From Candidatus Latescibacterota bacterium (GTDB lineage: Bacteria; JAAXHH01; JACQVL01), in assembly GCA_016209865.1 (NCBI GenBank), contig JACQVL010000060.1, forward strand, positions 1 to 6,550: 6,550 nucleotides of DNA, in the 5' to 3' direction. Under the pieces are notes generated by a model. It was not told where the DNA came from and ran no database searches. It was given only the letters and a program-made list of their open reading frames with translations. Positions 4 through 6,550 of the stretch are shown in pieces (positions within the stretch are counted from its first letter, which is position 1; each line of letters begins with the position of its first letter). Made by a program: the position numbers and the translations under genes.

Positions 4-966
4 ATGCAGAGTGTCATTCCCGCGAAAGCGGGAATCCATCGTCTTTCCCGAACCCCGTACCCCGAATCCCGTATCCCGGGTGTTCTCCGCGCGGCAGAGC
101 CCTACCTCTTGTTGAGTCCCGGCTATCTCCTCATCCTGGCGCTGATGATCTATCCGATGATCAGCGTCGTGCTCCTCTCATTACGCTATTACCTGTTGAT
201 GGAGCCGGGCCATACTCCGTTCATCGGGCTGGACCACTACCGGCGGGTGTGGCAGGACGCGTACTTCTGGCGCAGCCTGCAGAACTCGGCGGTGTGGGTG
301 ACGGCGTCCCTCCTCTTTCAATTTCTGTTCGGGTTCACCCTGGCGCTCCTCCTCAACAGCGCCCGGTTCAGGGCGAAAGGCGTCTACCAGGCGGTCGTCT
401 TCACCCCGTGGGCGGTCTCCGGGTTTCTGATCGCCATGATGTGGGCGTGGATGCTCAACGGCGAGTTTGGGGTCGTCAACGACCTGCTCCTGCGGGCGCA
501 CCTGATCGAGCAGAAAGTGGGGTTTCTCTCCCGGAGCCAGACCGCCCTCCTGTCGTGCGTCGTGGCGAACGTCTGGTTCGGCCTGACGTTCTTCGCCATC
601 ATGCTGCTCGCCGCCCTCCAGTCGATCCCGGTCGACCTGTACGAGGCGGCGCACATCGACGGGGCGTCCGCGTGGCAGCGGTTCTGGCGGGTGACGCTGC
701 CGCTGCTGAAGCCGACGATCATCGTCACCGTGCTGCTGCGGGCGATCTGGATTTTTAACTGGGCGGACATCATCTGGGTGATGACGAAGGGGGGACCGGG
801 CGGAGCTTCGCAGACGCTCTCCCTGTACGTCTTTCAGAAGGCGTTCTTAGGGCTGGATTTCGGGTATGCTGCCGCGCTGGGGGTGGTGCTGATGGGCCTC
901 TCCTTCGCGTTCACCGTGGCCTTCCTGCGGGTCAGCCGATTCCACGAGGGGGGAGCATTCCAATGA
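4..966 (+). CDS. Carbohydrate ABC transporter permease, MalF/UgpA type (5' end uncertain)
   Basis: Inner-membrane permease subunit of a binding-protein-dependent sugar importer; with the next gene product it forms the translocation pore and docks the ATPase. Hydrophobic segments lie near residues 35-60, 95-118, 128-151, 180-206, 238-260 and 288-309, the six-helix layout of the family. The cytoplasmic EAA loop is clear: E214-A215-A216, G220 and L232-P233. The GGPG turn at 263-266 followed by TLSLYVF is also typical. The reading frame is open to the window edge, so the gene may begin upstream. The first 25 residues are encoded by a palindromic repeat and a 14-base tandem repeat and do not look like permease sequence; homology-like sequence starts near residue 30. 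No ATG or GTG occurs in frame between codon 1 and the first helix; TTG codons at 109 and 112 are the only nearby alternatives and have no convincing ribosome site. The family is secure, the start is not. The substrate cannot be read from the sequence. Confidence 0.93.
   Translation: MQSVIPAKAGIHRLSRTPYPESRIPGVLRAAEPYLLLSPGYLLILALMIYPMISVVLLSLRYYLLMEPGHTPFIGLDHYRRVWQDAYFWRSLQNSAVWVTASLLFQFLFGFTLALLLNSARFRAKGVYQAVVFTPWAVSGFLIAMMWAWMLNGEFGVVNDLLLRAHLIEQKVGFLSRSQTALLSCVVANVWFGLTFFAIMLLAALQSIPVDLYEAAHIDGASAWQRFWRVTLPLLKPTIIVTVLLRAIWIFNWADIIWVMTKGGPGGASQTLSLYVFQKAFLGLDFGYAAALGVVLMGLSFAFTVAFLRVSRFHEGGAFQ
13..38. repeat. VIPAKAGI-type palindromic repeat, copy 1
   Basis: A perfect 8-base stem (ATTCCCGC at 16-23, GCGGGAAT at 28-35) closes a GAAA loop at 24-27, preceded by GTC and followed by CCA. 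This is the short dispersed palindrome that translates as VIPAKAGI and is common between genes in many bacteria. Here it lies in frame at the beginning of the permease reading frame and supplies residues 4-12 of the predicted protein. Stem and sequence are seen directly; identity as the dispersed family is recognition from memory. Confidence 0.8.
50..77. repeat. 14-base degenerate tandem repeat
   Basis: Two adjacent 14-base units, GAACCCCGTACCCC (50-63) and GAATCCCGTATCCC (64-77), differ at two positions. They lie 11 bases after the palindromic repeat. Such low-complexity units are usually intergenic, which strengthens doubt about the annotated start of the permease. In translation they give the proline-rich stretch around residues 17-25. 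Confidence 0.75.
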
Positions 967-1802
967 GGGCGATTCGCCAGGCTCGCCTTCACGCCGTCAT
1001 GAAAGCATGCGGTCTGAGCTTCTTCTTCGTCTTCGTGAGCTTTCCCATCTACTGGATGGTCGTCACCTCCTTCACCCCCGAGGATGAGCTCTTCTCGTTT
1101 CCGCTGCGGTATGTCCCGGTTCATCCCACGTTTGCCCATTACGAAACGACCCTCCTCCGCACCCGCATCCCTCAGTATTTCCTGAACAGCATGGCGGTCG
1201 CGTGCGTCGCGTCCGGCCTCACTCTGAGCATCGCGGTCCTTGGCGGCTACGCCCTCGCCCGGTACCGGTTTCGGGGCAAGCAGCCGACCATCCTCCTGTT
1301 CCTGGCGACACAGATGATGCCCGTCGTCGTCCTCATCGTCCCTCTGTTCATCGTCTTTAGAACTCTGGGGCTGATTAATACCCTCTCCAGCCTGATGGTC
1401 GTGTACACCGTGTTCAACGTCCCGTTCTGCACGATGATGATGCAGGGGTTCTTCGAGGGTCTCCCGCCAGAGTTGGAGGAAGCGGCGATGGTGGACGGGT
1501 GCACCCGGCTCGGGGCGATCCTGCGAGTGGCCGTGCCGCTCACCCGTCCCGGCCTGATCGCCACCTTTCTGTTCGCGTTCATCGGAGCCTGGAACGAGCT
1601 GCTGTTCGCGGTGATGTTCCTGAACACGGAAGCGCGGTTCACCCTCCCCGTCGGGCTGTACATGTTCGTCAGCAAGTATGACATTCACTGGGGACGGATG
1701 ATGGCGGGGGCGACGATCGCGCTCATCCCCGCCCTGCTCGTCTTCGGGTTCGTGCAGCGGTACATGGTGAAGGGGCTGGCGTTGGGAGCGGTGAAGGGAT
1801 AA
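963..1802 (+). CDS. Carbohydrate ABC transporter permease, MalG/UgpE type
   Basis: Second permease subunit of the same sugar importer, an integral inner-membrane protein. Its 279 residues are the usual length for the family. The EAA loop runs from E173-A174-A175 through G179 to P192, and the C-terminal tail KGLALGAVKG is the characteristic ending of MalG/UgpE permeases. Hydrophobic segments lie near 16-35, 73-99, 110-132, 140-160, 197-216 and 244-262. The start ATG overlaps the stop of the upstream permease in an ATGA (963-966), and a GGGGGAG ribosome site ends seven bases before it, so the two are translationally coupled. The stop TAA is immediately continuous with the first unit of the intergenic heptad repeat. 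No ATPase or binding-protein gene follows; the other importer parts are presumably upstream of the window or shared from elsewhere in the genome. Family is very secure; substrate unknown. Confidence 0.96.
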   Translation: MRAIRQARLHAVMKACGLSFFFVFVSFPIYWMVVTSFTPEDELFSFPLRYVPVHPTFAHYETTLLRTRIPQYFLNSMAVACVASGLTLSIAVLGGYALARYRFRGKQPTILLFLATQMMPVVVLIVPLFIVFRTLGLINTLSSLMVVYTVFNVPFCTMMMQGFFEGLPPELEEAAMVDGCTRLGAILRVAVPLTRPGLIATFLFAFIGAWNELLFAVMFLNTEARFTLPVGLYMFVSKYDIHWGRMMAGATIALIPALLVFGFVQRYMVKGLALGAVKG

Positions 1803-1868
1803 GGACGAAAAAGCAAGGACGAAGAAGTAAGGATGAAGGACGAAAAAAAGGCGGAAAGGATAAAGAGC
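1801..1868. repeat. AAGGACG heptad repeat, left arm
   Basis: Purine-rich array on the + strand. AAGGACG begins at 1801, 1815 and 1836, and the variant AAGGATG at 1829, so spacing is 14, 14 and 7 bases; the array then decays into A/G-rich sequence. The last codons and stop of the permease gene (AAGGGAT at 1794-1800) are in the same seven-base phase. Positions 1801-1824 are nearly the exact inverse complement of 1981-2005, with a single one-base indel. Confidence 0.8.
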
Positions 1869-1884
1869 TTCATTCCCTCGCATT

Positions 1885-1932
1885 GTCATTCCCGTCCTCG
1901 CTTCCGCGGGGATAAACTCCAGCGGAAATCCA
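1885..1932. repeat. VIPAKAGI-type palindromic repeat, copy 2 (longer, diverged)
   Basis: The element begins GTCATTCCCG (1885-1894) and ends GCGGAAATCCA (1922-1932). Two mutually exclusive stems can form: ATTCCCG (1888-1894) with CGGGGAT (1907-1913), allowing one G-T pair, or TTCCGC (1902-1907) with GCGGAA (1922-1927). It is the longer form of the repeat at 13-38, sharing its GTCATTCCCG start and ATCCA end. It sits in the centre of the inverted heptad arms. Confidence 0.7.
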
Positions 1933-1944
1933 TTTCTTTCGCCC

Positions 1945-2026
1945 TTCGTCCTTGCCGTTTTTGTCTTTTCGTCCTTCGTCCTTCGTCCTTGCTCTTTTCG
2001 TCCTTAGTCCTTCATACTTCGTCCTT
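1945..2026. repeat. CGTCCTT heptad repeat, right arm
   Basis: Exact CGTCCTT units begin at 1947, 1970, 1977, 1984, 1999 and 2020; variants AGTCCTT and CATACTT fill 2006 and 2013, so most of the array keeps strict seven-base phase. It is the inverse complement of the left arm. The final TT of the last unit (2025-2026) is the complement of two bases of the creatininase stop codon, so the array runs directly up to that gene's end. Confidence 0.8.
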
Positions 2027-2816
2027 ATATCGGCACATTCCGGATGAAGTCCCTTAGATAGTCCGTCACACCCTGCACGGCTAAGGCGGCGAACTGCGCC
2101 CCTTTCTCCGCGCTCGCCTTCGTGTAACTCTCATCCGCCACATCGCACAACAGCCGCGCCCGCAGACCCTGCTGGGTGAACGTCGTCGTGGCTAAGAACT
2201 GGTGGCCGGGCGGGACCTCCGGACCGGGACCGAACAGCCCGTATGTCGTCTCGATCTCGCCGACTCGATCCATACGGGTGTGCTGGGGGATGATGTGCAG
2301 GATGAGGGACGTCTCGAATTCGTCCGCGTGCCCGGGATAGTGGCGGCCTTCGTTGATCGCGGCGATCGCCTCCCGGTTGATCGTCTCCCAGTACGAGAAC
2401 GAGGCGACCTTCACTCCTAATTCCTCGGTGATCCGCCGGGCGGCCTGGGCGTTGACCGCCATGTTCCCGCCGTGGCCGTTGACGAACGCGAACCGGCGGA
2501 TGCCGTATCCCATCAGCGACGCGCAGACGTCCTTCAGCCAGTTGATCTGTGTCTCGACCCTCAGGGTCAGGCTTCCCGCGAATTCCAGGTGCTGCGGGGA
2601 ATGGCCGACGGCTAAGGGCGGGGTGACCAGCGCTTCGGGGTAGAGGCGTTCCGCCGCCCGGCACGCCATGTACGTGGCGGTGGCCGCGTCCACCTGGAGG
2701 GGAAGATGGGGGCCGTGCCCCTCGGTGCTGCCGGTCGGGATGATGGCTAAGCGAACCCGTTCGATGATGTCCTCGACTTCGGCGAACGTCATCTCAGGCA
2801 GGTAGACTTTAGGCAT
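2025..2816 (-). CDS. Creatininase-family metallohydrolase
   Basis: Cytoplasmic metal-dependent amidohydrolase of the creatininase family; members cleave creatinine, formamides or cyclic diketones. The 263 residues match family length. Conserved blocks are PTGSTEGHGPHLPL (27-40) followed by D43, NGHGGN (113-118), and GHADEFETS (162-170). By comparison with characterised creatininases, E32, H34, D43, H115-region and E166 are likely metal or catalytic residues; the last block is usually GHAGE, so D165 replaces the common glycine. The start is supported by AAGGAG six bases before the ATG. It is the last gene of the five-gene minus-strand operon, 12 bases after the unknown exported protein. Creatinine itself is an unlikely substrate: next to a sugar importer, a DeoR regulator and an aldolase, a sugar- or inositol-derived diketone (as for IolN-type 3-dehydro-scyllo-inosose hydrolases, from memory) is a reasonable alternative. 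Family secure, reaction not. Confidence 0.93.
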   Translation of the reverse strand: MPKVYLPEMTFAEVEDIIERVRLAIIPTGSTEGHGPHLPLQVDAATATYMACRAAERLYPEALVTPPLAVGHSPQHLEFAGSLTLRVETQINWLKDVCASLMGYGIRRFAFVNGHGGNMAVNAQAARRITEELGVKVASFSYWETINREAIAAINEGRHYPGHADEFETSLILHIIPQHTRMDRVGEIETTYGLFGPGPEVPPGHQFLATTTFTQQGLRARLLCDVADESYTKASAEKGAQFAALAVQGVTDYLRDFIRNVPI

Positions 2817-2828
2817 GGGACTCTCCTT

Positions 2829-3614
2829 CTACGGCAGGAGCAGGGGACGGACCCAGACATAGTAGACCGTCCCGCCGTCGGTCACGACCGGATGGTCGGC
2901 GAGGAGCCGGTAGGCGGTCCGGGCGGACTCTCCCGTCAACGTCTGGAACGCTTCTGACTTGCGGCCTAAGAGCGCGCGCAGGGACACGTCCGGCAACGGC
3001 CATCGGGCCGCCGACGCGGCGGATGACGCCAGACGGGGCGGCAGGGGATGGATGGCGAGTTCGACCTGGTCGGGGATGAACGGTTGCGCCCTGGGATGGC
3101 GGTAGCCTTCCAGGAACCGGTTGAGGCCGTTGAGGGCTTCCCAGGCCGGGGCGTTGCGTGGCTGGCCGTCGTGGGCTTTCAGGTCGGCCAGGGACATCCG
3201 CAGGGTTCGCGGAGGGTTGAACACCCCCATCCAGATCACCACCCCGTTGGCGTCTTTCTGCGGAGGCGTCTTCGGCCTCTGGATGTAGGGGAGTTCTCGG
3301 GCTAATCGCTCCGGCGTGATCCCGGAGAAATGGAATCGCTGCTGGAGGGAGAACAAGAAGGCCCCCAGCTCTTGGGGAGTCAGGACGACCTGCCGGTAGG
3401 ACGGCCGGTCGGCAGGACTGCCTCGATAGATCAGCGTCCCGTTCTGGTACAGGATGAATTGCGGAGTTCTGAGCTGGAACGCGGCCTCGACGGTGGACGA
3501 ACTCGGGACGAACTGGCGCCAGAGGAAGGGAACGGGGGCTTCACCCGGAGCGGGGGTGTCCGCCCGGGCCGAGCCGGCAAACAGGAGGATGAAGACGAGG
3601 CACAACGTTGGCAA
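2829..3614 (-). CDS. Exported protein of unknown family
   Basis: I do not recognise this protein. The reading frame stays open far upstream (to 4055), but that part is an antisense-free shadow of the preceding gene in another frame, so I place the start at a TTG (3614-3612), seven bases after the preceding stop. This gives 261 residues with a short hydrophobic leader, LCLVFILLFAGSARA, and probable cleavage after A18. The mature part contains PQFILYQNGTLIYRG (near 48-62), resembling a short beta hairpin, then LTPQELGAFL and a proline-rich middle (PYIQRPKTPPQKD); the C-terminus is VTDGGTVYYVWVRPLLLP. No catalytic motif or lipobox is apparent. The leader lacks the usual early positive charge, so the start may be wrong; a GTG overlapping the preceding stop (3627-3625) begins a different, shadow frame (MSRP), which could hint at a frameshift. 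Operon position after another exported protein suggests the two act together outside the cytoplasmic membrane. Confidence 0.8.
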   Translation of the reverse strand: MPTLCLVFILLFAGSARADTPAPGEAPVPFLWRQFVPSSSTVEAAFQLRTPQFILYQNGTLIYRGSPADRPSYRQVVLTPQELGAFLFSLQQRFHFSGITPERLARELPYIQRPKTPPQKDANGVVIWMGVFNPPRTLRMSLADLKAHDGQPRNAPAWEALNGLNRFLEGYRHPRAQPFIPDQVELAIHPLPPRLASSAASAARWPLPDVSLRALLGRKSEAFQTLTGESARTAYRLLADHPVVTDGGTVYYVWVRPLLLP

Positions 3615-3621
3615 GGTCGAC

Positions 3622-4518
3622 TCACTTACGCCCCAGGTTGGCGATACACTGGTCGTAGGTCGCTCGATGAGCCGGGTCGATCTCGATGAGTAGCTGGTAG
3701 ACATCCGGCGTCGTCTCTGTCTTGAACACGTCGGCCAGTTCGAGGTAGTGCGCGTCGAGAAACTCCTTCGGGCGTTCGTCCCTGGGCTTCGTCTTGAGGA
3801 AGGACGCCAGGCTGTCGATCGCTTGCGCGCAGAATCGTTTGGCTTCGTAATTGTTCCCCTCTTTGTGGAGCCGGATCCCCTGGTAGAACGTCGCCCGGAG
3901 CTGGCGGTACGGCTTGTAGTCGTCGGACAGGATATCCTGGACGCGCTGCAGCCGTTCATCCCACCCGCGCTGGTATTCGGGGCTGAATCGGCCGTCCGTG
4001 GCGATCGTGTGGGCCCGCTGGAAGTGCTCATTCCCGCCGAATAGGCTGTATTCATCCAGGGTGTGTCCGATCATCAGATGGACGTAGTAATCGATCAACC
4101 AGGTCAAGGGATGGAAGCGGTGTTCGTCATGACGGAGGACGTCACCATGCTCGAACTCGAAGAACCACCACCGGTCGAGGTATTTGATATCCGTCCCGTT
4201 GGACGCGGTCAATTTCGAGCCATACTGCGTCTTGATCCGGCTGCTGAGGTAGGCGAGGAACGCTTCCAGTTGGACCCGCACCGGGTTGGGCAGGGGTTGA
4301 TCGAGCCAGTCATGGCCTTCGACGTAGTCTTTGAGCTGGCGATTGAACTCCCGGAGGTCCTCCTGCTGGCGGAGAGGGAGGGTCTCCAGGTGGATGATGA
4401 ACTCTGCTCTGACCTGCTGGCCGCTCGCCCGGCCTGGCAGGGCCGCGACGCTGAGGAGCCCCGCCAGCAGGAGGGACAGCGTGCGACGGGTCTGAGATGG
4501 ACTCGGATGGGCTCCCAT
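3622..4518 (-). CDS. Exported DUF4835-like (PorD-like) protein
   Basis: Secreted or periplasmic protein of 298 residues. The leader has R11-R12, a leucine-rich core (14-27) and a likely cleavage site ASG|QQ after G33. The mature part matches what I know of DUF4835: an opening beta strand, a W71 in a REFNRQLKDYVEGHDW helix, the central block PLTWLIDYYVHLMIGHTLDE (137-156), the nearly invariant-looking FGGNEHFQRA (160-169), then GWDERLQ (185-191), and a helical C-terminus containing EFLDAHYLELADVF and a DPAHRATYDQC end. In Bacteroidota this family is annotated as a type IX secretion component, PorD; its molecular role is unclear and no other secretion genes occur here. The start has GGAG eight bases before the ATG and follows the aldolase stop by 21 bases. 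Domain recognition is from sequence pattern without a search; I am fairly confident of the family, not of the function. Confidence 0.88.
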   Translation of the reverse strand: MGAHPSPSQTRRTLSLLLAGLLSVAALPGRASGQQVRAEFIIHLETLPLRQQEDLREFNRQLKDYVEGHDWLDQPLPNPVRVQLEAFLAYLSSRIKTQYGSKLTASNGTDIKYLDRWWFFEFEHGDVLRHDEHRFHPLTWLIDYYVHLMIGHTLDEYSLFGGNEHFQRAHTIATDGRFSPEYQRGWDERLQRVQDILSDDYKPYRQLRATFYQGIRLHKEGNNYEAKRFCAQAIDSLASFLKTKPRDERPKEFLDAHYLELADVFKTETTPDVYQLLIEIDPAHRATYDQCIANLGRK

Positions 4519-4539
4519 ACGCGGTTCTCCATCGATGGA

Positions 4540-5457
4540 TCAGACAGGCTCGTCCTCGGTGGCCCGCTGGTAGGCGCTGTAGGCGTCATCAGGGGTCATC
4601 CGTCCGTCGAGGACGGCCCGCAGGGCGCGGGCGATCTGGCGCGGGGACTGCTCTTCAAAGATCGCCCGACCGAACAGGATCGCCCGGCCGCCGTGCGTGA
4701 TGACATCGTGGGCCAGGTGCAGCGTCGTCCGGGCATCCCGGCGGGGACCGCCGAGCGCCCCGACGATGAGCGTGGAGTCAAAACGAGTCAACGACTCCCA
4801 GATGGCCGGGGTGGTGTACGCCGTCTTGAGGAATCGCGGCCGCTGGTGCGGGAGCAGGTAGCTCATCAGCCGGCCGATCGAGTCGGCGACGAACTGGCCC
4901 TGTGCCTCCGGGTCCAGGCCGGGCTGGGGGAGGTTGGGCAGGAACACCTCCAGCACATGGTCGAAGTCCGGCCGCTCCCCCACCGCGCGGGCGAACCGCA
5001 AGTACGCGCTCAGGACGACCTCGTCTGAGTCAGCCCGGTTGTTGAGGGTGATGGAGTAGAGGCCGAGGCGCACCGCCCCGCCGGACGCGGCGTCCTCTAT
5101 CGTCACGGTCGAGAACGGGAGGGAAGGGCTCTCCCGGTACCGGCCGGACCGGGGGTTCCAGATGCCCGTCTCCGCATTCATCCGGACGAGGGGGGTGACT
5201 GGACTGTCATCGAACAGCCGTTCCTCGACGGCTAAGAGCGCCGCGTCCGCCGGGGTGAGCAGGAGGCCGTCGATGACCGCGTCGTCGATGAATTGGCGGA
5301 GGAGGGCGAGGAATTCCGGGCGCGTCCGGGCGCGTCCGGCGGTCTCCCCTAAGCAGAGCAGCCCGCCGCTCGCCTGGGGGTCGGCGGCGAAGACGAAGAT
5401 CGGGCTGCGCCTCAGGCTGTCGGGATCGTCGAGTTTCTTGAACAATCGGTCGCCCAT
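4540..5457 (-). CDS. Class I aldolase-like protein, DeoC/FbaB/LsrF family
   Basis: Probable cytoplasmic TIM-barrel aldolase that cleaves a phosphorylated keto-sugar through a Schiff base. The 305-residue protein has FLKTAYT at 209-215, placing K211 where DhnA/LsrF-type aldolases carry the Schiff-base lysine, followed by LIVGALGGPRRDA (230-242), the phosphate-binding glycine loop, and GGRAILFGRAIF (256-267), the last barrel strand with its typical GR. The N-terminal half has IDGLLLTPADAALL (62-75), matching the first barrel strands. The phosphate loop is GALGGPR rather than the commoner GGGGS form, so this is a divergent member. The ATG lies three bases after the repressor stop and has only a weak GGTG upstream, implying translational coupling. 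Pairing with a DeoR regulator supports phosphosugar catabolism. Which aldol substrate it uses cannot be told; deoxyribose-phosphate, fructose-bisphosphate and autoinducer-2 phosphate enzymes share the fold. Confidence 0.8.
   Translation of the reverse strand: MGDRLFKKLDDPDSLRRSPIFVFAADPQASGGLLCLGETAGRARTRPEFLALLRQFIDDAVIDGLLLTPADAALLAVEERLFDDSPVTPLVRMNAETGIWNPRSGRYRESPSLPFSTVTIEDAASGGAVRLGLYSITLNNRADSDEVVLSAYLRFARAVGERPDFDHVLEVFLPNLPQPGLDPEAQGQFVADSIGRLMSYLLPHQRPRFLKTAYTTPAIWESLTRFDSTLIVGALGGPRRDARTTLHLAHDVITHGGRAILFGRAIFEEQSPRQIARALRAVLDGRMTPDDAYSAYQRATEDEPV
5316..5339. repeat. 10-base tandem duplication inside the aldolase gene
   Basis: CCGGGCGCGT occurs twice in a row (5316-5335) followed by a partial third CCGG. 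It encodes the RARTR stretch near residues 42-46 of the aldolase. Ten bases is not a multiple of three, yet the frame is intact, so if it arose by duplication the ancestral frame must have been compensated; it may equally be chance in GC-rich coding DNA. Confidence 0.5.
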
Positions 5458-5460
5458 TTT

Positions 5461-6390
5461 CTACACCAACGGAATCATCGTCTTATACACGCACACCTTG
5501 CCGTCCGCATGGGGGGTGAGGGCGCGTGAGAGTTCAAGGTCGCCGGCTTTCTTCCCTGGGGGGATATCCGTGACGAGGGTCAGGGGGAGGCCGGTCTTCC
5601 CCTGGTCGTGTCCGGCCGCGTGCCGGCCGGCGGCGTGGTCGATCAGCCAGGGGTCCGGTTTCAGCCCGCAGAACGTCACCGTCCCGCGCGCGGTCTTCCC
5701 GAACTTCGTATGGTCGAGGACGACGATCACCTCGTCCGCGACCTTGATGAATCGCTGTTTCATCTCGATGATTTTCGGGTTGTTGACCATCAGGCCGGCG
5801 TCCAGTCCGAACCCGGCGCCGGAGAGGATGGCTTTGAACGGGCCGGCCCAGCAATACTGGTAGAACTCGTCGCCGTCCGGACAGTCGACGTAGCAGAACG
5901 ACCGGGCGACCGGGATACCGCCCAGTTGCGCGAATTCCACCCCACCGTACGAGCAGAGGGCGAGGACGTGCGGGGCGTAGCTGTTGGTGATGACGCGGAG
6001 GCCGGTCTTGCCCTGGACAACGACCTGACGGGCGACCAGGTCGATCGTCCGGCCGGCGTCGAGCAGCAGAGGTTTATCCCAGTTCTTGATGCACGTCTCC
6101 GCCACGTAGGCGCTCAGCATCTGGATGGCGTCCATCTCCGCGCTGCTCGCCCCTTCGTAGAACCCGTGGAACGGATGATCCTCGCGGGCCAGTTCCGCGC
6201 CGCCCCAGACCCGGATGAGGCTCAGGCTGTGGGCCTTCAGAATCGTCTCGATCTCGTCGAAGTCACTCCGGATGGCCACCTCGGTCACGTTGAGGTCCTG
6301 GCTCAACTCATGGGTATGCACCCGGCCATCCCTCAGTAACCGCATGATGATCGTCTGAAGCCGCCGTTCTTTCTCCGTCTTCACAGGCAT
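5461..6390 (-). CDS. DeoR/GlpR-family transcriptional regulator
   Basis: DNA-binding repressor that responds to a phosphorylated sugar. The N-terminal winged helix (residues 6-65) has the family's helix-turn-helix, HTHELSQDLNVTEVAIRSDF (25-44), and the wing ends in RVWGGAEL (60-67), equivalent to the usual RvHGGA. The C-terminal sensor domain shows DAGRT (111-115), ITNS (134-137), a glycine-rich GAGFGLDAGL (191-200), IIEMKQRFIKVAD (207-219) and LDHTKFG (225-231), all typical of DeoR sensor domains. At 309 residues it is longer than the usual roughly 250-260, mostly through an extended segment around 146-190 and a tail after residue 250. The start has an excellent GGAGGT six bases before the ATG. 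It heads the five-gene operon, with a strong promoter upstream, so it probably controls its own operon and the aldolase. The ligand is unknown. Confidence 0.94.
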   Translation of the reverse strand: MPVKTEKERRLQTIIMRLLRDGRVHTHELSQDLNVTEVAIRSDFDEIETILKAHSLSLIRVWGGAELAREDHPFHGFYEGASSAEMDAIQMLSAYVAETCIKNWDKPLLLDAGRTIDLVARQVVVQGKTGLRVITNSYAPHVLALCSYGGVEFAQLGGIPVARSFCYVDCPDGDEFYQYCWAGPFKAILSGAGFGLDAGLMVNNPKIIEMKQRFIKVADEVIVVLDHTKFGKTARGTVTFCGLKPDPWLIDHAAGRHAAGHDQGKTGLPLTLVTDIPPGKKAGDLELSRALTPHADGKVCVYKTMIPLV

Positions 6391-6419
6391 GTCCCCACCT
6401 CCCCCATGCTGGTCGTCCC

Positions 6420-6448
6420 AATGTAACCCGGTCGATGCAGAGTGTCAA
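6420..6448 (-). promoter_or_regulatory. Sigma70-type promoter of the deoR-aldolase operon
   Basis: On the minus strand a perfect TTGACA (6448-6443) is followed, after exactly 17 bases, by TACATT (6425-6420), which matches four of six bases of the -10 consensus. Transcription would start near 6413, giving a leader of about 22 bases that contains the GGAGGT ribosome site. The promoter fits the gene arrangement well; it has not been tested, and the sigma factors of this organism are unknown. Confidence 0.7.
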
Positions 6449-6449
6449 G

Positions 6450-6463
6450 CGGTTTCCAGACCG
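6450..6463. promoter_or_regulatory. Candidate operator dyad next to the -35 box
   Basis: CGGTTTCCAGACCG has four-base inverted ends (CGGT/ACCG) and 10 of 14 positions agree with its own reverse complement. It begins two bases upstream of the TTGACA box, where an autoregulator of the DeoR family could bind. The arms are short, so the call is tentative. Confidence 0.3.
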
Positions 6464-6550
6464 ATTGATGGTTCACTCTTCTCCGGGTCCCCTCGCATGC
6501 TGGGGACGACAGAGGGGTCAGGAGTGCGTCGACCACACGCCAATCCCACC
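6464..6550. other. Region upstream of the deoR promoter, no gene seen
   Basis: No credible reading frame, RNA gene or terminator is visible. It contains CATGCTGG at 6496-6503, also present in the leader region at 6405-6412, and GGGACGAC at 6503-6510, the inverse complement of GTCGTCCC at 6412-6419. These could be spaced regulator sites flanking the promoter, or chance. Confidence 0.3.

What the first reader, a model, noticed from the sequence alone, without database searches (positions are those of the whole stretch)
2829..4518. Two exported proteins, one DUF4835/PorD-like, embedded in a sugar-catabolic operon
Between an aldolase and a creatininase-family hydrolase, with gaps of only 21, 7 and 12 bases, lie two genes for proteins with signal peptides. 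The first matches DUF4835 by its central GGNEHFQRA block and aromatic helix; the second is unrecognised. A family tied to type IX secretion in Bacteroidota would not be expected in a DeoR-controlled operon. The pair may be a two-protein envelope module whose expression follows a sugar signal, or an unrelated pair co-transcribed by chance.
Basis: partly seen in the sequence, partly recalled or inferred. Interest (0 to 1): 0.6.

Follow-up and report, generated by a model that had tools for sequence, protein, structure and literature searches.

The report
PorD secretion gene with new partner
In a small group of uncultured bacteria, the gene for PorD, an accessory of the type IX protein-secretion machine otherwise described in Bacteroidota, is always paired with a previously unnamed exported protein, and in several genera it sits behind a sugar-type regulator; this points to a possible new part of that machine.

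Summary
The 298-residue protein is a true DUF4835 member (Pfam E 7e-25, full length), most likely the divergent PorD of a type IX secretion system (T9SS). The window's genome belongs to a small phylum (16 genomes held, one order), so it is not Bacteroidota. All 16 carry T9SS sorting domains (34 in the window's own genome) and PorV proteins; 15 carry the SprA translocon. All 16 have one DUF4835 gene and one copy of the 261-residue partner. The two are neighbours in all 15 genomes where contigs allow a test, even where a pilin or zinc-ribbon gene lies between them. The partner was not found in 175 genomes outside the phylum, two of which have PorD, and matches no library family. The aldolase and creatininase genes are not at this locus in relatives. 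DeoR is the surprise: in four of five genera it is a single-copy gene upstream of porD, behind a TTGACA promoter; the fifth genus (12 genomes) lacks it. The pair is real, the PorD-T9SS link is well supported, and the sugar-catabolic operon is local. That the partner acts with PorD, and that DeoR controls it, are inferences. The partner could not be folded confidently.

The parts
3622..4518 (-). PorD-like (DUF4835) exported protein, 298 aa
   Evidence: PF16119 E 7.1e-25, 88.2 bits; NCBIfam T9SS_PorD 83.1 bits, below the equivalog cut-off of 170; single copy in all 16 phylum genomes
2829..3614 (-). phylum-specific partner, 261 aa, TTG start inferred, signal-peptide-like N terminus without lipobox
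   Evidence: no family match; one copy in 16 of 16 phylum genomes and 0 of 175 others
5461..6390 (-). DeoR-family regulator, first gene of the run
   Evidence: PF00455 and PF08220 above cut-off; orthologue only beside porD, in 4 of 16 genomes
6420..6448 (-). promoter-like site TTGACA-17-TACATT upstream of deoR
   Evidence: 10 of 12 consensus bases, the only such site in 1700-6550 (0.8 expected); TTGACA-16/17-TAGATT at the same place in three other genera
4540..5457 (-). class I aldolase-like protein, at this locus only in the window's genome
   Evidence: weak C-terminal match to DhnA-type aldolases, E 3.5e-8; not found at the locus in relatives
2025..2816 (-). creatininase-family amidohydrolase, at this locus only in the window's genome
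   Evidence: PF02633 E 1.3e-55; not found at the locus in relatives
4..1802 (+). two sugar-type ABC permeases, convergent with the run; conserved neighbours in most relatives
   Evidence: PF00528; 66-78% identity, convergent with the partner gene in most relatives and in G001

Best explanation
The 298-residue protein is the PorD of a T9SS in a non-Bacteroidota phylum. As in Flavobacterium and Porphyromonas, it would sit in the periplasm on SprE/PorW next to the SprA translocon and help efficient export of proteins with a C-terminal sorting domain. The 261-residue protein is a soluble periplasmic protein peculiar to this phylum that most likely works with PorD or the same translocon. In the window both are read from one promoter in front of a DeoR-type regulator. 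The aldolase and creatininase genes were inserted locally into this unit. Shown: family membership, T9SS genes in the phylum, conserved pairing, DeoR linkage. Inferred: the PorD function, the partner's role, co-transcription and DeoR control.
For: Full-length DUF4835 match. DUF4835 in 16/16 phylum genomes. SprA in 15/16, 14 above cut-off. T9SS sorting domain in 16/16, 34 in the own genome. PorV family in 16/16, 11 in the own genome. Among 43 genomes outside the phylum, the two with DUF4835 both carry strong SprA (672 and 612 bits) and none has DUF4835 without SprA. The partner is in 16/16 and 0/175 others. It is adjacent to porD in all 15 testable genomes, with gaps of -4 to 514 bases. DeoR sits directly upstream of porD in every relative that has it, with a conserved promoter. 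PorD biology is from PMC10994853 and PMC8754138.
Against: NCBIfam scores it below the PorD equivalog cut-off (83 against 170). sprA was not found in the window's own genome, which is 83% complete. PorW/SprE, PorD's known partner, was not searched for lack of a model. GldM and GldN gave no match, but without a positive control. In genus g3 a zinc-ribbon gene lies on the opposite strand between porD and the partner gene, so one simple transcript is unlikely there. [quoted passage not shown] johnsoniae (PMC10994853).
Confidence: 0.62

Rival explanations
1. The DUF4835 protein is a T9SS component but the 261-residue protein is an unrelated periplasmic protein that stays next to it through conserved gene order.
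For: The convergent ABC permease genes are also conserved neighbours without an obvious T9SS role. In g3 the two genes are split by an opposite-strand gene.
Against: Adjacency survives several insertions and spans four genera with partner identities down to 35%. The partner gene is never lost or moved.
Confidence: 0.33
2. The pair is a sugar-responsive envelope module of a catabolic operon, with the DUF4835 protein adapted away from secretion.
For: A DeoR gene leads the run in four genera; sugar ABC permease genes are neighbours.
Against: Aldolase and creatininase genes are not conserved at the locus; genus g3 keeps the pair without DeoR; DUF4835 occurrence follows SprA.
Confidence: 0.1
3. Both are chance neighbours and the DUF4835 match is superficial.
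For: Identity to the DUF4835 proteins of two genomes outside the phylum is only 26-28%.
Against: The match covers 275 of 276 profile positions at E 7e-25, with conserved adjacency throughout the phylum.
Confidence: 0.01

Closest known systems
PorD of Porphyromonas gingivalis (PGN_1783) and Flavobacterium johnsoniae (Fjoh_3466), DUF4835/PF16119
   Same: Full-length family match, signal-peptide-like N terminus, one copy per genome, occurs with SprA, PorV and T9SS sorting domains
   Different: Divergent (83 bits against an equivalog cut-off of 170); beside deoR and a new exported protein instead of coaBC and a recN-type gene as in a Prevotella record; outside Bacteroidota
DeoR-family sugar-phosphate regulators (AgaR, SrlR, DeoR)
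   Same: HTH and DeoRC domains, first gene of a run
   Different: Best NCBIfam score 61 bits against a cut-off of 260; found only beside porD

Membership tests
DUF4835 (PF16119) | score above the gathering cut-off of 25 bits, full length | tested here: met
   88.2 bits, profile 1-275/276
NCBIfam T9SS_PorD equivalog NF052317 | score above 170 bits | tested here: not met
   83.1 bits; filed as PorD-like, not as an NCBI-defined equivalog
PorD as T9SS accessory | occurs in organisms with a T9SS | tested here: met
   SprA 15/16, sorting domain 16/16, PorV 16/16; sprA itself not seen in the incomplete own genome
PorD as T9SS accessory | binds SprE/PorW | not testable with these tools
   needs pull-down or two-hybrid; a SprE homologue was not searched for
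T9SS, complete with motor and ring | PorK/L/M/N (GldK-N) | tested here: inconclusive
   GldM and GldN models matched nothing, without positive control
Partner as member of any named family | significant match to a library family | tested here: not met
   no significant Pfam, NCBIfam, PHROGs, PDB or plasmid match

The most novel reading that the evidence does not exclude
The 261-residue protein is a new, phylum-specific T9SS component bound to PorD at the translocon, and the module is switched by a DeoR-type regulator according to a phosphorylated sugar, tying protein export to nutrient state in a lineage outside Bacteroidota.
Probability: 0.25. Interest if true: 0.65.

Novelty: new variant of a known kind. 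Interest (0 to 1): 0.42.

Why it matters
The papers read here describe T9SS in Bacteroidota or the wider FCB group, and PorD's role is unclear because its deletion gives a mild phenotype or none. A small phylum with SprA, PorV, sorting domains and a PorD always paired with one unnamed protein gives a concrete candidate component and a testable hint of regulation. A 2014 Poribacteria paper (PMC3909097) reported sorting domains without secretion genes; whether this phylum is related is not known.

Tried and rejected
Fold of the partner from a two-row alignment failed (pLDDT 38.8), so it was not searched. The PorD model was weak (pLDDT 54.3); its helical C-terminal half gave only non-significant hits, several of them TPR-like. 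GldM and GldN searches had no positive control; the Prevotella record did not serve as one. A search for a shared DeoR operator found only the promoter. Scans of plasmids and viral contigs for the partner found nothing. The phylum's name could not be established.

Full report
Observation. The window is a whole contig (G000:C352) of an 83% complete, 3.75 Mb genome in 356 contigs. On the minus strand lie a DeoR-family regulator, an aldolase-like protein, the 298-residue protein, the 261-residue protein and a creatininase, with gaps of 3, 21, 7 and 12 bases.

Identity. The 298-residue protein matches Pfam DUF4835 at E 7e-25 over positions 1-275 of 276. NCBIfam's PorD model matches over nearly its full length but at 83 bits, below its cut-off of 170. 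It is therefore a divergent PorD-like protein. The 261-residue protein matches nothing in Pfam, NCBIfam or PHROGs, nothing in PDB sequences by profile, and its 14 aligned homologues give only chance-level Pfam hits.

Phylum and T9SS. A request for up to 60 genomes of the phylum returned 16, all of one order, so the phylum is small and cannot be Bacteroidota. All 16 carry exactly one DUF4835 gene. SprA is found in 15 of 16, above cut-off in 14, and not in the incomplete own genome. The T9SS sorting domain is in all 16, 34 times in the own genome. PorV-family proteins are in all 16, 11 in the own genome. Of 43 genomes outside the phylum, two have DUF4835; both have strong SprA, five others have SprA above cut-off without DUF4835, and none has DUF4835 without SprA. 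By a hypergeometric count (7 SprA-positive of 43, both DUF4835 genomes among them) this has p of about 0.02. DUF4835 thus goes with T9SS, as reported for PorD (PMC10994853).

The pair. The partner is found once in each of the 16 genomes and in none of 175 others, including the two outside genomes with DUF4835. It follows the DUF4835 gene on the same strand in all 15 genomes where both lie on one contig. In G001 the two lie at contig ends, and the partner is followed there by the same convergent permease genes. The spacing varies from a 4-base overlap to 514 bases. In G011 a prepilin-like gene lies between the two. In 11 of 12 g3 genomes a 49-63 residue zinc-ribbon protein is encoded there on the opposite strand. 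Keeping the pair through such insertions speaks for a functional link but does not prove it.

The operon. Aldolase and creatininase genes have no counterparts at the locus in any relative, so the sugar-catabolic setting is local. The DeoR gene differs: its orthologue exists in four genera, once per genome, each time directly upstream of porD or, in the window, of aldolase-porD; it is absent from all 12 g3 genomes. Upstream of deoR all four genera share TTGACA, 16-17 bases, TA(C/G)ATT. In g3 a TTGACA site lies about 40-80 bases upstream of the porD start chosen; in L024 the pattern search stopped at an earlier TTGAC, with the shared site just after it. In a Prevotella record porD lies between coaBC and a recN-type gene, so the arrangement here is different. 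No terminator-like site was seen between the genes beyond chance. Sugar control by DeoR is plausible but untested; no shared operator was found.

Mechanism. In P. gingivalis PorD binds PorW and is needed for full secretion efficiency (PMC8754138). In F. johnsoniae it binds a disordered region of SprE in the extended translocon, and its loss has no detectable effect (PMC10994853). The same place is the most likely one here. The partner has a signal-peptide-like start without lipobox, and no T9SS sorting domain was recognised in it, so it is probably a soluble periplasmic protein acting with PorD or the translocon. This step is inference. The structure model of the partner was too poor to use; that of PorD was helical with non-significant, partly TPR-like matches.

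Verdict. The finding is real but less odd than it looked: a secretion accessory in a phylum that has the secretion system. What is new is the constant unnamed partner and the DeoR linkage.

Noticed in passing
L031:10275-10458 (minus) and the same gap in other g3 genomes: A conserved 49-63 residue zinc-ribbon protein (CxxC...CPxCGR) is encoded opposite to and between porD and the partner gene.
   Followed up: partly
L036:10260-10733: A type IV prepilin-like gene lies between porD and the partner gene in genome G011.
   Followed up: no
window 1793-2028: Many imperfect direct and inverted copies of an AAGGACGAA-type repeat fill the space between the convergent permease and creatininase genes.
   Followed up: no
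G000, G001, G011, G013 against genus g3: The four genomes carry 21-34 T9SS sorting domains, while genus g3 carries only 2-4, although SprA is kept there.
   Followed up: no
L037:8521-9315: In G022, outside the phylum, porD is followed 3 bases later by a different exported, lipoprotein-like gene of no known family that is not a relative of the partner.
   Followed up: partly
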